Origin: Rhodococcus sp. P-2
GTDB taxonomy: Bacteria > Actinomycetota > Actinomycetes > Mycobacteriales > Mycobacteriaceae
Assembly: GCF_016598535.1 (NCBI RefSeq)
Contig: NZ_CP066779.1
Location: 1,922,001-1,986,000 of the forward strand
DNA length: 64,000 nucleotides
Direction: 5' to 3'
Shown: positions 44,626-53,294 of the stretch, piece by piece
How the letters are laid out: each line of letters begins with the position of its first letter
Position numbering within the stretch: position 1 is the first letter of the stretch
The notes under the pieces: model-generated
Told to the model about the DNA's origin: nothing
Databases searched by the model: none
Seen by the model: only the letters and a program-made list of their open reading frames with translations
Made by a program: the position numbers and the translations under genes

Positions 44626-45096
44626 CGCTTACAACTACCGTCCGCATACGACCGGCAGATGCCGAGCATGTCAATACTCGGTGAACAATCCGCGCACCGA
44701 AGGGGCACGATGGCCGTACACGAACCCTGTTGTCAATGAAAGAGATACAGCCGAATCACTACGAAAATTGCTACACACAAACATATTCCGGTATTCGCAT
44801 ACGCACATTCTTCGCCATCCGGCGGAATTCACAACGATCTATTGAAATTTGTTTCACCACAGAGTGATTGATCGATCAACTGACAGGTGACCAAGGCCGT
44901 AAACCGGATGTCCAGTATTCGAATTGTCCGAAATAACGAGCGGAATGTTCCTCGTCACATCTCGCCTCGAAGCAGTTGCGCGGAGTCTCAGGTCGCGTTC
45001 TACTTGCCTTGACTAATCATCTGTCACTCTCGGTTACAAACATCCGCCCCGTTCACGATCCCCACCTTTCGCCATCTCGAGAGATCAGGTTTCCCA
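44626..45096. other. AT-rich divergent region upstream of the PapA-like cluster
   Basis: A 471-bp spacer, markedly more AT-rich than the flanking genes. It contains the perfect palindrome TTGATCGATCAA (44868-44879), a possible operator. A loose promoter match TTGACT (45009-45014) with GGTTAC (45032-45037) lies about 60 bp before the first acyltransferase gene. No small gene with a ribosome-binding site is seen. Confidence 0.45.
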
Positions 45097-46593
45097 ATGG
45101 AATTCACGGAACTTGCCGACTATCCCCTACCACCCGGGACCGTCACCGAGTGGACTCCCGGCGCGGTGAATCCGCCCTCGCAGTGGCCTGTCGACCAGCG
45201 CCCCGCCAGCTACATCCACGAAGCACATCTGAAACATGCCGAGCAGATGAAACGGCAGGAGCGCTACAAGATCGACGGGTGCGCTCCTTCGTGGCTGGGT
45301 ACCTCGTTTCGCATCCACGACAGACTCGACCGAAGGATCTGGGCAGCCGCTCTCGATCACTGGATCGATCGCCACGAAGTGCTCCGAACACACGTCGCCG
45401 TGGAGGACGAGGCGATAGTCCGACGCACCGCGGGGCGTGGGGACGTCCGGATTTTGGGTAACGACGTCGGACATCTTGCGTCCTCGATGTCCGTCTTCAC
45501 ACATCTGCAGCAACTGCTCGACCGATCGACCGATCCACTTGTCTGGCCTGCGTATCAGTTCGCGACGATTGAAGGTCCCAACCACTTCACCGTGGTTTTT
45601 GCCGCCGATCATGCTCTGCTGGACGGATACTCGGTGGCGTTGACCGCGCACGAACTGCAGACGATCTACCGTTCGCTGAGCGAGGGAAGTCATCCCTCAC
45701 CGCCGGAGACCGGAAGCTACATCGACTTCGGCACCAGGGAACGAGATCTCGTGGAACACGCGGACTGCTCTCACCCGGCGGTGCAGACGTGGCGCGAGTT
45801 CTACGCGCAGGGCGAGGCTCCGTACTTTCCATCGCTACCCGAACCGGTCGTCGGACGCCGCGTCCCTCAACAGAGCCTGTCCGCTTGGCTTCTGAGCGCC
45901 CGGGGCGCCGAACGCCTGGCAGAAGCGAGCAAGCGCAGCAACCAAGGTTTCCTTGCCGCGATACTCGCGTGCGCAGCCAAGGTGACCGGAGATCTCACCG
46001 GCGCAGACGAATTCCGCGTCGTCGTGCCGCAACACACGCGTTCGGAGCTTCGATGGGCTGCGTCGCTGGGATGGTTCATCGGTGTTGTGCCGGTGAGGAT
46101 TCCGATTGCCCCCGCCGCAACGGTGAACGATCTGGCCCAGCTTGCCGGAGTGGAGATACGACGCGTCCGCCCCGCGGCGGCCCTGCCGTATTCGAGAGTG
46201 TGCGAGCTGATCGACTCCCCGCATCACCTGCCGTTCGTGCTCTCCTACATGGACGTTCGTCACGTTCCTGGTGCCGAGCAATGGACGAGCTGGCAGACCA
46301 GAGGCCTTCGTAGTCGCGATCATTCGGGAACCGACGTCTACATCTGGCTCACACGGACTCCCGAAGGGCTCAATCTGGCCATACGCCACCCGGGCAATGC
46401 GCGCACGAGCCGCCACATCCATCACTTCGCGGGACTCCTACGCCGCGAAATGGAGGACTTTGCCTTCTCGACCGACACATTCGCACCTCCGACCAACACC
46501 GCTGCACCGATCGAGGAGAACTCTCATGGAAATGACACCCATCGATCTCTGGGCACCGAAAGCCGGGACGCTCACCGAGTTCAGGCCTACTGA
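45097..46593 (+). CDS. PapA-like acyltransferase (condensation-domain fold), gene 1 of 3
   Basis: A 498-residue protein of the condensation-domain superfamily, closest by eye to mycobacterial PapA1/PapA2, which transfer acyl chains to trehalose-based lipids. Residues 1-35 carry the PapA-type opening PPGTVTEWTPGA, followed by RHEVLR (92-97) and the catalytic HxxxDG as DHALLDG (His172, Asp176, Gly177). The channel motif appears as SLGWFIGVVPV, and FVLSYMDVRHVPGAEQW follows near residue 375. No carrier-protein or adenylation domain is attached, so it acts as a free-standing enzyme. Its 3' end overlaps the next gene by 68 bp, and the tail beyond residue about 475 is low-complexity. Confidence 0.85.
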   Translation: MEFTELADYPLPPGTVTEWTPGAVNPPSQWPVDQRPASYIHEAHLKHAEQMKRQERYKIDGCAPSWLGTSFRIHDRLDRRIWAAALDHWIDRHEVLRTHVAVEDEAIVRRTAGRGDVRILGNDVGHLASSMSVFTHLQQLLDRSTDPLVWPAYQFATIEGPNHFTVVFAADHALLDGYSVALTAHELQTIYRSLSEGSHPSPPETGSYIDFGTRERDLVEHADCSHPAVQTWREFYAQGEAPYFPSLPEPVVGRRVPQQSLSAWLLSARGAERLAEASKRSNQGFLAAILACAAKVTGDLTGADEFRVVVPQHTRSELRWAASLGWFIGVVPVRIPIAPAATVNDLAQLAGVEIRRVRPAAALPYSRVCELIDSPHHLPFVLSYMDVRHVPGAEQWTSWQTRGLRSRDHSGTDVYIWLTRTPEGLNLAIRHPGNARTSRHIHHFAGLLRREMEDFAFSTDTFAPPTNTAAPIEENSHGNDTHRSLGTESRDAHRVQAY

Positions 46594-47992
46594 ACAGTCC
46601 CTGGCGGCGGCATCCGGGGCACCGCGGAGCGACCAACCGCTCTCGTTCCTACAAGAAGGACACATTCGAACCGCCGATCACAAGCGTGCACAAGGCGTCG
46701 ACTGGTCACCGTGGATCGGATTCACGTTCACTCTGCCCGGTGATCTCGATCGGGAAGCACTGCGTCGGGCGGTCCAGGCGTTTGTCCTGCGGCACAACAC
46801 ACTGCACAGTTGGTTCGAGGTCAGACCATCCGAAGATCCCGACGGGAGCGGGGTCATCGACCGTCACGTGGTGGATGCATCGACGATCGAACTCACGCCG
46901 CACAGCGTCGGTTCTCTGCACACGACCGATGCGGTTCGCGAGCATGTCAGCCGAAGTTTCGCCGGCGATACCAGCCCACTGCAGTGGCCCTCGTTCATCA
47001 GTGGCGCCGTCGAGCACGGCGCCGGCTTCACCGTCTACTACGGCGTCGATCACTCGCACACCGACGGCCTGTCGCTGATGCTGGGCGTCGAAGAACTTCG
47101 TGCGTTGTACATCGCCGAAAGCGCCGGCATCGACGCCCAACTTCCCTCTCCCGGCAGCTACGTCGAGTACAGCGGCGAAGAGCGGGCCTCGGCAGGAAGC
47201 CTTGATCTGGCTGCAGCCCCTGTGCAGCAGTGGATTTCGATTCTCGCGGCCAATGCCGGACAACTCCCGACGTTCCCCCTCGACCTCGGCGTCGCGCGGG
47301 GCGAACAGACCCGGTCGACCCGCACACACATCGACGTTCTCGACAGCGACGAGTCAGCCGCGTTCGCAGCGCTGTGCAAGTCCCATGGTGTCGGCTTCTC
47401 CACGGGGATCTTCGCAGCCCTCGCCCTCACCGAGATCGAAGTTGCGGACAGAGCGAACTACTTCGCGCTCAACGCAGTCGGTACCCGCTCCGATCCGAGA
47501 TACCTCTACGCGCAAGGCTGGTTCATCAACCTCGTCCCGGTCTCGTTCACGCTGAGTGATGTCACGAGCTTCACCGATGCACTCCCCCTTGCCCACGCTG
47601 CTCGCGCAGCAGTGAAGGGACTCGCGGACGTGTCCATTCACTCGGTGATCGCCCAGGTGTCGAAGTTGACCGGATCCGACATCGGCGGAACCTCGGTCCC
47701 GCCGATGGTGTCGTACATCGACATGCGCCTGATTCCAGGTGCCGAGCACCACGACGAACTCGACGCGCGCGCACTGGGTGGGCCAGGAACGACGGGTGAT
47801 CTGTCGATGTGGATCAACAGGAAGGAAGACCGTACGTACGTGATGGTCAGTTTTCCCGATACCGAGCAAGCACACACATCGGTGGATCGGTACCTTCGAC
47901 ACCTCCGCAACGTCCTGAGAACGGTCGCCGATACCGGCGACTACCGTGTCGTTCGTCAGGCGGATGCACGTCAGGAAGTGGAGACCGCCTGA
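46526..47992 (+). CDS. PapA-like acyltransferase, gene 2 of 3
   Basis: A 488-residue paralogue of the preceding enzyme. The opening is LWAPKAGTLTEFRPT, with RHNTLHSWF (89-97) and the catalytic HxxxDG as DHSHTDG (His176, Asp180, Gly181). AQGWFINLVPVSF is the channel motif, and MVSYIDMRLIPGAEHHDELD and LSMWINRKED lie near the end, both reminiscent of PapA2. The ATG at 46526, preceded by GAGGAG (46513-46518), lies inside the 3' end of gene 1, giving a 68-bp overlap. The longer frame upstream is antisense-free but lacks family sequence, so this start is preferred. The stop overlaps gene 3 (TGATG). Likely substrate: an acyl-CoA or acyl-carrier and a sugar or alcohol acceptor. Confidence 0.85.
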   Translation: MEMTPIDLWAPKAGTLTEFRPTEQSLAAASGAPRSDQPLSFLQEGHIRTADHKRAQGVDWSPWIGFTFTLPGDLDREALRRAVQAFVLRHNTLHSWFEVRPSEDPDGSGVIDRHVVDASTIELTPHSVGSLHTTDAVREHVSRSFAGDTSPLQWPSFISGAVEHGAGFTVYYGVDHSHTDGLSLMLGVEELRALYIAESAGIDAQLPSPGSYVEYSGEERASAGSLDLAAAPVQQWISILAANAGQLPTFPLDLGVARGEQTRSTRTHIDVLDSDESAAFAALCKSHGVGFSTGIFAALALTEIEVADRANYFALNAVGTRSDPRYLYAQGWFINLVPVSFTLSDVTSFTDALPLAHAARAAVKGLADVSIHSVIAQVSKLTGSDIGGTSVPPMVSYIDMRLIPGAEHHDELDARALGGPGTTGDLSMWINRKEDRTYVMVSFPDTEQAHTSVDRYLRHLRNVLRTVADTGDYRVVRQADARQEVETA

Positions 47993-49374
47993 TGCACATA
48001 ACCTTTCTCGACAGGTTCGAGGCACGGCCGGGGCGCATCCTGCAGTGGACTCCGAGCGAAATCTCCACCGGATCGACGTATCCGGTTCCTCCGACCTCGA
48101 ATCAGCAGCTGCATCTTGCCGGGAGCCGCGGCGATACGACATGGCTCGCTGCCACTTTCGACGTCCCCGGCCCCATCGACACGGACGCACTCAGAGCCAG
48201 CTTCGAGGAATGGACGTCCCGCCACGACGCCCTGTCGTGCTCGTTCTCCCAGGCCGAAGTACCGGGTGAATCCTCGGCACTGTTCGTCGACGTCGCCGAT
48301 ATCGGCGACCTGCGCCTCCGTGAGGAAACCGTGGCGGACGCACGAACGCCGGAACAGGTGCGAGAACTCTTGGGCGAGCGCCTGGATCGATGGTGCAATC
48401 CTTTTGCGTTTCCCGCGTACTTTCTCGGTGCCATCACCCGCGACGACCAGTCGACAGTGATCTGCGGGTTCGACCATGCCATCTGCGACGGCTGGTCCAT
48501 GAGCATCGCCATCACCGAGATCAGCACTCTGTATCGCGAATACACTCGGGCAGAACGTGTTCCGATCGCGTCGGATCTATTGCCGGAGCCCGGAAGTTTC
48601 CTCAACTACTGCTTCCGCGAATCGGCAACAGCGGATCCAGATCCCGGCGACCACCGCATTGCGGGTTGGCGGTCCTTCCTTCGATCATGCGGAGGTGACA
48701 CTCCCCATTTTCCCGTGGATCTGGGACTACCCGCCGGAACGATGTCACCCCAGGGCACCGACACCCGAATGCTCCTCGACGCCGACGAAGCAGAGCTCTT
48801 CGACCAGAACTGCGCCGATCATCGACACTCGCCTTTCGGCGCGATTCTTGCGTCGATCGGTTTGGCCACAACACAATTGACCGGCAAGAGGGACACACAC
48901 CTGCTGTTTCCGGTCCACACACGTCGGGAACCGCGGCACAACCACACCTTCGGATGGCTGGTGGCCAATGCGCCCATCACCGTGACGAGCAAGGATAATC
49001 TTCACAGCACTGCTCGGGCAGTCAATCTCGCTTTCCACGAGTCACTTTCACTGTCGTCCGTGTCCTCGCGACAGGTGTTGCGGAGCTTGGGGCCCGAGGT
49101 TTCGCCCACTCGCCGAGACATCTTCTCGGTGTCCTACGCCGACTACCGAACCATGCCCGGTGGATCTCGCCCCCGCAAATCAGAGTCCCGCGAATCACAG
49201 CCTGCGCCGATCAATCCGCAGCAACTCAGTCGCGTGTCGAATGCCGACGATGTTCAGTTCTGGTTCTCGCGCACCCACGACGGTCTGGCACTTCGCACCC
49301 GCTTTCCCGCGCCCGCGGCTCGGACGGTGCACACCTTCCTCGCGAGTGTCTCCGAGATTCTGTCGGCTCCGTAG
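47992..49374 (+). CDS. PapA-like acyltransferase, gene 3 of 3
   Basis: A 460-residue third member, more diverged. The opening ARPGRILQWTPSE, SRHDALSCSF (about 77-86) and catalytic DHAICDG (His162, Asp166, Gly167) are all present. The channel motif is HTFGWLVANAPI, and the late FSVSYADYRTMPGG aligns with SYMDVR and SYIDMR of genes 1 and 2. The ATG shares bases with the stop of gene 2 (TGATG), so translation is coupled. After its stop the DNA turns AT-rich and carries the ohrR promoter, so the cluster ends here. Three different acyltransferases in a row could place several acyl groups on one acceptor. Confidence 0.84.
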   Translation: MHITFLDRFEARPGRILQWTPSEISTGSTYPVPPTSNQQLHLAGSRGDTTWLAATFDVPGPIDTDALRASFEEWTSRHDALSCSFSQAEVPGESSALFVDVADIGDLRLREETVADARTPEQVRELLGERLDRWCNPFAFPAYFLGAITRDDQSTVICGFDHAICDGWSMSIAITEISTLYREYTRAERVPIASDLLPEPGSFLNYCFRESATADPDPGDHRIAGWRSFLRSCGGDTPHFPVDLGLPAGTMSPQGTDTRMLLDADEAELFDQNCADHRHSPFGAILASIGLATTQLTGKRDTHLLFPVHTRREPRHNHTFGWLVANAPITVTSKDNLHSTARAVNLAFHESLSLSSVSSRQVLRSLGPEVSPTRRDIFSVSYADYRTMPGGSRPRKSESRESQPAPINPQQLSRVSNADDVQFWFSRTHDGLALRTRFPAPAARTVHTFLASVSEILSAP

Positions 49375-49394
49375 AGCTACAGCTGCATATATAT

Positions 49395-52289: not shown

Positions 52290-52340
52290 GCTTTCCAGCG
52301 TACGTGCCTTACTCGTCGGTAGGGAGGGGCGATTTTCCGG

Positions 52341-53294
52341 TCATCGCTTGCGCTTGGTCCGGATCGGCTTTGCTCCCGGCAACGGTGCGGCGGCCCTTCG
52401 GGGCGCCTGGGTCGCGGCCGTCGAGGATGTCGGCGACAATTCGGCCTCCTTCTGCTCCGCCGCGATGCGTCCGTAGACGAGATGCTGTTGTCCCAACGTC
52501 CAGCAGTTGTTGCTCACGAAATAGAGCAGGATCGCAACAGGGGCGAAAGCGCCGAACGCAACCACACCGATCGGAAATACCCACAGCGCAAGTTTGTTCA
52601 TGATTGCCGTCTGGGGGTTGACGGTTCCGGTGTCCACCTGACGTGCGATGGACGCCCGCGACGTGAAATGCGTAGCGACGGCCGCGAAGATCATCAGCGG
52701 TACGGCAACCAGAATGATGGAGATTCGGCTGACGTCGCCGAACGCCTCCAGTTGTGCTGCCGGACTCGAAATCATGGCGGACAACGGCGCGCCGAACAGT
52801 TTGGCGTCGAGAAACGACTGCACGTCCGAGGCGCTGAAGAAGTAGTTGGCAGTGTTCGCGTTGTCCGCCACCGACATGGGCTCGGTCGGGCTCAGAAACG
52901 GGACGTGGGATGCCGCTCCGGTTCGATTGAATGATCGCAGGACGTGATAGAGACCAATGAACACCGGTGCCTGAACGAGCATCGGCAGGCATCCGAGCAA
53001 CGGGCTGTAGTTGTGTTCCTTCTGCAGCTTTGCCATCTCGACAGTGAGCTTCTGCCGGTCGCCCGAATACTTCTTCTGCAATGCCTTGATCTGCGGTTGC
53101 AGTTTCTGCATCACGAGTTGGGTGCGGACTTGCTTGACGAATGGTTTGAACAGCAAGGCCTTGAGCGTGAAGACCAGAAACACGACCGAAAGCGCCCATA
53201 CGACGCCGTTGTCGGGTGATCCGGAGATCAGTGAGAAGACCTTGTGCCAGAACCAGAGGATTCCGGACACGGGGTAGTAGACAAAATCGAGCAT
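52341..53294 (-). CDS. YidC/Oxa1-family membrane insertase (paralogue)
   Basis: A 317-residue membrane protein with five or six helices that inserts proteins into the cytoplasmic membrane. The family core is visible: LKALLFKPFVKQVRTQLVMQ (positively charged loop after the first core helix), KLQPQIKALQKKYSGDRQKL (coiled hairpin), LGCLPMLVQAPVFIGLYHVL, and PVAILLYFVSNNCWTLGQQHLV at the end in two parts. The tail is basic (PIRTKRKR). The ATG at 53294 follows a GGTGAGG box. It is preceded by a DUF6412-like gene. The main essential yidC normally sits in the rnpA-dnaA region, so this is probably a second copy. Confidence 0.88.
   Translation of the reverse strand: MLDFVYYPVSGILWFWHKVFSLISGSPDNGVVWALSVVFLVFTLKALLFKPFVKQVRTQLVMQKLQPQIKALQKKYSGDRQKLTVEMAKLQKEHNYSPLLGCLPMLVQAPVFIGLYHVLRSFNRTGAASHVPFLSPTEPMSVADNANTANYFFSASDVQSFLDAKLFGAPLSAMISSPAAQLEAFGDVSRISIILVAVPLMIFAAVATHFTSRASIARQVDTGTVNPQTAIMNKLALWVFPIGVVAFGAFAPVAILLYFVSNNCWTLGQQHLVYGRIAAEQKEAELSPTSSTAATQAPRRAAAPLPGAKPIRTKRKR

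What the first reader, a model, noticed from the sequence alone, without database searches (positions are those of the whole stretch)
45097..49374. Three consecutive free-standing PapA-like acyltransferases without PKS, NRPS or MmpL partners
Seen: three genes in one coupled run (68-bp overlap, then TGATG), each with one HxxxDG condensation-type active site, a GWF/GWL channel motif and a PapA2-like opening and tail, and no carrier or adenylation domain. Known: mycobacterial PapA enzymes acylate trehalose (sulfolipid, polyacyltrehalose) or phthiocerol, and their genes sit beside pks, fadD and mmpL. Here the neighbours are sthA and ohrR. Inference: a compact, undescribed system that multiply acylates a glycolipid, perhaps trehalose lipid, or another polyol. 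The long AT-rich upstream region suggests dedicated control. This is the strongest candidate in the window for a new system.
Basis: partly seen in the sequence, partly recalled or inferred. Interest (0 to 1): 0.72.

Follow-up and report, generated by a model that had tools for sequence, protein, structure and literature searches.

The report
Inserted three-gene glycolipid acyltransferase cassette
Three neighbouring genes in a soil Rhodococcus probably attach fatty acids one after another to a sugar such as trehalose; they belong to an old, ordered three-enzyme set found in many related bacteria, here sitting as a bare cassette between two unrelated genes.

Summary
In detail: A (45097-46593), B (46526-47992) and C (47992-49374) are intact, coupled, stand-alone PapA/condensation-fold proteins with HxxxDG and GWF/GWL. 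They are not alone of their kind. A, B and C fall in three separate clades, and A-B-C stands in this order in 14 of 20 regions that I picked from C-class hits in related genomes; an ABC-2 exporter pair lies beside it in 11 of those 14, glycosyltransferases in 13. This genome also has a paralogous set, B'-C'-sulfurtransferase-A', at an acyl-CoA carboxylase locus with a divergent MFS transporter. A four-papA cluster with matching spacing was already linked in print to succinoyl trehalolipids. The window trio is a clean extra of about 4.7 kb between sthA and ohrR: 5 of 28 sampled congeners have it, and two others show the empty site. It brings its own leader, nearly invariant next to the start codon. 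Its closest kin are bare Nocardia trios (firm for A and C, tentative for B). Best explanation: successive acyl-CoA-dependent acylation of trehalose or a similar sugar, with substrate and export from elsewhere. 'Undescribed system' is too strong: it is a new variant of a known kind.

The parts
44694..49385 (+). Extra segment (boundaries within a few bases) absent from two congeners
   Evidence: L162 (R. globerulus) and L163 (G011) have sthA and ohrR head to head with 135 and 144 bp between; window flanks align up to about 44692 and from about 49386
44843..45096 (+). Conserved leader/promoter region of the trio
   Evidence: 20 of 254 columns variable in 5 genomes (13 of 123 plus 7 of 131), only 3 of 107 in 44990-45096, against 30-34% of fourfold sites in A, B, C
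45097..46593 (+). Gene A: class-A PapA-like acyltransferase, 498 aa, HALLDG, GWF
   Evidence: clade A
46526..47992 (+). Gene B: class-B PapA-like acyltransferase, 488 aa, HSHTDG, GWF; 68-bp overlap with A
   Evidence: model pLDDT 89.3, best PDB match PapA2
47992..49374 (+). Gene C: class-C PapA-like acyltransferase, 460 aa, HAICDG, GWL; TGATG junction with B
   Evidence: model pLDDT 87.3, best PDB match PapA2

Best explanation
A, B and C are three non-redundant acyl-CoA-dependent O-acyltransferases of the PapA (trehalose-type) kind, probably made from one transcript. They esterify different hydroxyls, or use different acyl chains, on the same sugar, most likely trehalose, giving a multiply acylated trehalose lipid (tri- or tetraester, perhaps succinoylated by another enzyme). 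The cassette entered the sthA-ohrR gap of the R. erythropolis/qingshengii group with its own control region and without the exporter and glycosyltransferases that go with most trios elsewhere, so it must use host trehalose, host acyl-CoA and a host exporter, and it runs alongside the resident B'-C'-A' set. Shown: gene structure, family, fold of B and C (models), three-clade structure, conserved order, presence/absence at the site, conserved leader, purifying selection. Inferred: acceptor, donors, order of steps, export, single transcript, gain rather than loss.
For: Catalytic motif and PapA2-like fold. A, B and C form three clades of 50, 45 and 39 rows in a 134-row tree. Order A-B-C in 14 of 20 regions picked from C-class hits; among those 14 an ABC-2 exporter pair in 11, GT2 in 12, EryCIII-like GT in 13 (Pfam of one representative of each family). 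C class in 73 of 251 family genomes and 13 of 31 genera. I2R, a producer of succinic trehalolipids, has four papA genes whose coordinates match A-B-C-gap-A' (the match is my reading). R. erythropolis X5 makes succinoyl trehalose lipids. PapA2, PapA1 and PapA3 acylate trehalose-2-sulfate or trehalose. Empty site and leader.
Against: No substrate evidence. The GT-rich context of relatives would also fit oligosaccharide or other glycolipids, and two A-B-C loci of one genus code (L059, L153) show none of these partners. The own genome has a second set that could make the trehalose lipid alone. The trio evolves faster than most neighbours (dN/dS 0.09-0.23 against 0.00-0.09 for five neighbouring genes). 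A search for the trio-linked GT1 in the own genome was empty, without a positive control in that call, and the closest exporter homologue belongs to another group. TlsA, the one enzyme that a paper ties to this chemistry, could not be compared by sequence.
Confidence: 0.6

Rival explanations
1. The trio acylates a different acceptor: an oligosaccharide (trehalose extended by glycosyltransferases), a glucosyl lipid or another polyol, giving a lipid distinct from that of the resident set.
For: Most relatives sit beside GT2 and EryCIII-like GTs. Tri- to pentasaccharide acyl lipids are known from Tsukamurella, R. fascians and N. corynebacteroides (review PMC4365757, passages). A, B and C are only 35-42% identical to A', B' and C'.
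Against: No such GT among the neighbours of the window trio; the search for the trio-linked GT1 in the own genome was empty (no positive control).
Confidence: 0.22
2. The trio is a redundant or decaying extra copy of the resident B'-C'-A' set with little contribution of its own.
For: Same three classes present twice; faster evolution than most neighbours; found in only 5 of 28 sampled congeners.
Against: All three frames and catalytic motifs intact; dN/dS well below 1 against each of four orthologous loci; leader almost invariant.
Confidence: 0.12
3. The genes act with an NRPS or PKS encoded elsewhere (terminal acylation of a lipopeptide or polyketide ester, PapA5-like).
For: PF00668 family; many NRPS condensation domains in the genome (75 PF00668 matches in all, most in long frames); class-B genes in many Nocardia loci sit beside a type I PKS and MMPL genes.
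Against: The lone class-B genes put in the tree (7 rows) form a clade apart from window B. None of the 32 loci showed the PKS or MMPL families there searched. The PapA5 model matches only weakly; PapA2 far better.
Confidence: 0.06

Closest known systems
Mycobacterial PapA2/PapA1/PapA3 (trehalose acyltransferases)
   Same: Fold, HX3DX14Y spacing in A, B, C, stand-alone proteins of about 460-500 aa, best solved match 6aef; several PapA act in sequence on one trehalose (PMC4183827, passages).
   Different: No pks, fadD or mmpL found beside the window trio; three classes in one coupled run; the Zn-binding C19 and H21 described for PapA2 (PMC6996325, passages) align with E and R in B (read).
papA3-papA1-papA3...papA3 cluster of Rhodococcus sp. 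I2R (PMC8396431)
   Same: Coordinates in its table match A-B-C followed by a gap of about 1.5 kb and a fourth gene; proposed for succinic saccharide esters.
   Different: The I2R cluster has the fourth gene; function there is also only proposed. Its sequence was not fetched, so the match rests on spacing and order.
TlsA of Rhodococcus sp. SD-74 (Inaba 2013, cited in PMC8396431; paper itself not held)
   Same: Putative acyl-CoA transferase said there to play a key role in succinoyl trehalolipids; its closest I2R homologues are the four papA genes.
   Different: Reported about 30% similar, E 8e-70 to 8e-30, to the I2R genes; among the six proteins of this genome that range loosely fits B' or B, without excluding C (E-values depend on the database size I set). 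Orthology to any window gene is untested.
Resident B'-C'-sulfurtransferase-A' set of the same genome (700.9-706.7 kb)
   Same: Same three classes: A/A' 42%, B/B' 38%, C/C' 35%.
   Different: Other order, interrupted by a rhodanese gene, divergent MFS transporter; B' has HAHSDM instead of HxxxDG.

Membership tests
PapA trehalose-type acyltransferase (PapA1/2/3 kind) | Condensation/CAT fold as in PapA2 | tested here: met
   B TM 0.86/0.91 and C TM 0.85/0.85 to 6aef as best PDB match; A by sequence only
PapA trehalose-type acyltransferase (PapA1/2/3 kind) | HX3DX14Y motif (name recalled; no hit in the paper library) | tested here: met
   A, B and C all have it; 132 of 134 rows of the tree set
PapA trehalose-type acyltransferase (PapA1/2/3 kind) | Acyl transfer to trehalose or a trehalose derivative | not testable with these tools
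   needs enzyme assay or mutant lipids
PapA trehalose-type acyltransferase (PapA1/2/3 kind) | Linkage to pks, fadD and mmpL genes (usual context, not strictly defining) | tested here: not met
   immediate neighbours are a membrane protein with a weak DMT match, sthA, ohrR, ohr, oxidoreductases and a YidC-like gene; the rest of the 64 kb was not annotated
NRPS condensation domain | Carrier and adenylation domains in the protein or beside it | tested here: not met
   only PF00668 in A, B, C; no other PF00668 hit in the window
A-B-C trio with exporter and glycosyltransferases (defined here) | One member of each clade in the order A-B-C | tested here: met
A-B-C trio with exporter and glycosyltransferases (defined here) | Divergent ABC-2 exporter and GT genes beside it | tested here: not met
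   not among the neighbours annotated at the window locus; ABC pair present in 11 of 14 A-B-C regions
TlsA orthologue | Orthology to TlsA of SD-74 | not testable with these tools
   paper not held and no TlsA sequence at hand

The most novel reading that the evidence does not exclude
The ordered A-B-C trio is a general three-step acylation module for export-bound glycolipids in mycolic-acid bacteria, separate from the mycobacterial pks/mmpL type, each clade fixing one position or chain; in the R. erythropolis group a second trio arrived as a bare cassette with its own leader and makes a different acyl pattern from the resident set, so one cell builds two acyl-sugar lipids.
Probability: 0.3. 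Interest if true: 0.68.

Novelty: new variant of a known kind. Interest (0 to 1): 0.48.

Why it matters
Trehalose ester biosurfactants of Rhodococcus are valued products, yet which enzymes place each acyl chain is largely open; [quoted passage not shown] The trio gives three candidate enzymes per set with a clear class for each, two sets in one genome, a natural presence/absence pair of species and a defined empty site: a direct way to test position and chain specificity.

Tried and rejected
An internal TAG reported for C in G015 and G025 is the normal stop read past by the alignment; C is full length there, without inner stops.

Idea that the trio's exporter had merely moved: the closest permease in the own genome is 67% identical. 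Searched with it, 20 of 29 genomes have a match of 69% or more, and 8 of those genomes have both that gene and the trio-linked one at 57-67%. So it is another, widespread group; it could still serve the trio.

Idea that window B came from another source than A and C: in the quick 134-row tree B did not group with the Nocardia trio; in the careful B tree (41 of 45 rows; the B rows of L060, L144, L151 and one of L082 dropped) it did, together with L082, at 81/95, below the starred level. My test of a 6-row clade without L082 was rejected (p-AU 0.0018); the tree puts L082 inside that group, and I did not rerun the test with it. So common descent with the Nocardia trio is supported for A and C and only tentative for B.

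No Rfam match at gathering scores, no sigma-70-like or terminator-like site, no repeats of 14 bases or more across the insert, no close plasmid copy. The motif name HX3DX14Y was not found in the library. PMC7276702, PMC9009618, PMC10339595 and PMC7413640 (passages) gave nothing on these genes; PMC13206832 (passages) names a papA3 near a glycosyltransferase in a Rhodococcus NRPS cluster.

Full report
What is there. Each protein carries one PF00668 domain and no other Pfam match at 0.001. PapA2 of the Protein Data Bank (6aef) is the best sequence match for all three, and the models of B (pLDDT 89.3) and C (87.3) match PapA2 best, TM 0.86/0.91 and 0.85/0.85. A was not modelled. The H...D..............Y spacing, which I recall as the HX3DX14Y motif of trehalose-type PapA, is present in all three.

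A second set in the same genome. Of 75 PF00668 matches in the genome, three lie in the window and most of the others in long NRPS-size frames; a group of free-standing genes lies at 701-707 kb (L009). It holds B' and C', a rhodanese-type sulfurtransferase, A', and then a biotin-carboxylase gene, with a divergent MFS transporter in front. A/A' are 42%, B/B' 38% and C/C' 35% identical, each scoring above any cross pair. In the 11 congener regions that I fetched around such hits the order is also B-C-A (11 of 11), with a gene of the same MFS family in 11 and a sulfurtransferase frame called in 9. These regions were picked because they matched; at 1e-10, 27 of the 28 genomes of the genus had some match to B.

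Three classes in fixed order. I built a tree of 134 rows from 48 of the loci held, the window included. All 39 C rows, all 45 B rows and all 50 A rows form separate groups (SH-aLRT support only). Class was first assigned by best BLAST score to the six proteins of this genome, so the tree is partly a check of that assignment. Over 121 locus-strand entries, redundant copies included, the orders were: B alone 53, B-C-A 23, A-B-C 22, A-B-C-A 15, C alone 3, and five others once each. A C-class search of 251 genomes of the family found 73 with a match at E 1e-45 or better, in 13 of 31 genera. I took 20 regions from those hits, chosen by eye to spread over genera: 14 have A-B-C in order; the other six are C-A-B, A-C-B-A, B-C-A and three lone C genes. 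Two of the 20 (L141, L154) are near copies of named Williamsia loci.

Partners elsewhere. In those 14 regions an ABC-2 exporter pair lies divergent to A in 11, a family-2 glycosyltransferase in 12 and an EryCIII-like glycosyltransferase in 13; sulfurtransferase, A' and AccA3 follow in 7 (family names from one Pfam-scanned representative each). L153 has none of these partners, nor has L059, an earlier locus of the same genus code. Four of the five Nocardia A-B-C loci were looked at for partners (L072, L073, L075, L080; not L074): like the window they lack the adjacent exporter and glycosyltransferases, though L073 has an ABC pair about 3-4 kb further on. The window's A and C are grouped with the Nocardia trio by starred branches; B only tentatively. 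The partner searches in the own genome gave no GT1 match (no positive control), GT2 matches of 38-41% around 956-1026 kb near an NRPS region, and an ABC permease at 67% that belongs to another, widespread group.

An insertion. I searched 13 other congeners for sthA and ohrR: sthA of the same type (E 1e-150 or better) was found in 2 of 13, and in both it stands head to head with ohrR, 135 and 144 bp apart, without the trio. L162 is matched to R. globerulus NBRC 14531 by the length of another contig of the same handle. Window flanks align up to about 44692 and from about 49386, so about 4.7 kb is extra. G021 and G003, two of the 11 without such an sthA, have ohrR beside the DMT-like gene; the other nine were not looked at. 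Gain in the R. erythropolis group is the simplest reading; a clean loss in the others is not excluded. I saw no target duplication in the printed junctions and no repeat. GC3 of the trio is 0.70-0.73 against 0.73-0.80 for six neighbours.

Selection and leader. Pairwise dN/dS against four orthologous loci is 0.15-0.23 for A, 0.09-0.14 for B and 0.09-0.15 for C, against 0.00-0.09 for five neighbouring genes, of which the DMT-like one (0.06-0.09) touches B and C. The last 107 bp before the start of A have 3 variable columns in five genomes, while 82 of 241, 72 of 242 and 79 of 236 fourfold sites in A, B and C vary. The distal part, 44738-44842, is free to vary (48 of 105). This fits a promoter and leader under constraint; what reads it is unknown (searches found nothing).

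Literature. In PMC8396431 (passages, and section 2.7 whole) Rhodococcus sp. I2R, which makes succinic saccharide esters, has papA3, papA1 and papA3 in a row and a further papA3 after a gap; [quoted passage not shown] The table's coordinates (137187, 138665, 140099, 143010; lengths 1461, 1431, 1404, 1488) fit A-B-C-gap-A'. PMC9229178 (passages) lists papA2 (two copies) and papA3 in R. opacus S8. PMC6883108 (passages) reports succinoyl trehalose lipids from R. erythropolis X5. PMC4365757 (passages) tabulates trehalose diesters, tetraesters and oligosaccharide lipids across these genera. Ten searches of the library, judged by their listings and the passages named here, showed no paper that sorts these genes into three classes or describes the sthA-ohrR cassette; most subscription papers are not held.

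Mechanism. By analogy with PapA2, PapA1 and PapA3 (PMC4183827 and PMC6996325, passages), each enzyme would use its active-site histidine to let a sugar hydroxyl attack an acyl-CoA. Three clades kept together in order, and twice in this genome, argue for three different steps and not three copies of one. The acceptor is most likely trehalose, or trehalose already bearing an acyl group. This step, the chain choice and the route of export are inferred. Confidence 0.6.

Verdict. Real, conserved and more interesting than a lone oddity, but a variant of a known kind of enzyme set with a plausible known product class.

Noticed in passing
L081, L085, L086, L088, L097, L120 (Rhodococcoides/R. fascians group and kin): A lone class-B papA with MFS transporter, GT2, PF00756 esterase and secretory lipase genes (not every gene called in every locus) lies just beyond the same ohrR-ohr-oxidoreductase-SDR block that flanks the window trio. 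The one of these put in the tree (L086) is in a B subclade apart from window B, so the block may have attracted papA genes twice.
   Followed up: partly
L084-L140 (Nocardia loci; 32 loci with the PKS family N2): Lone class-B papA genes beside a type I PKS of about 2200 aa, with MMPL, MFS and AMP-ligase families nearby (one representative of each scanned): an arrangement like mycobacterial sulfolipid loci.
   Followed up: partly
window 52309-53199 and L072, L073, L075, L080: A YidC-like gene (60KD_IMP by clustering; the window protein itself had no Pfam hit at 1e-8) follows the bare trio in Nocardia and lies about 3 kb downstream of the trio here; relatives of 48-55% identity stand at the same place in four congener regions without the trio.
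   Followed up: partly
L158, L159, L160: Lone class-C genes in three Rhodococcus genomes near genes of about 1300 aa; the one scanned (L158) has nSTAND and WD40 domains.
   Followed up: no
G000:C1:4474557-4474907: A weak single PF00668 match in a 514-aa frame; tblastn with the six PapA proteins found no match in this region at 0.01.
   Followed up: partly
Plasmid records H1-H10: Distant class-B-like proteins (24-28% identity) on Sinorhizobium, Cupriavidus, Tsukamurella and Streptomyces plasmids; nine of the ten places are annotated as condensation domain-containing protein.
   Followed up: no
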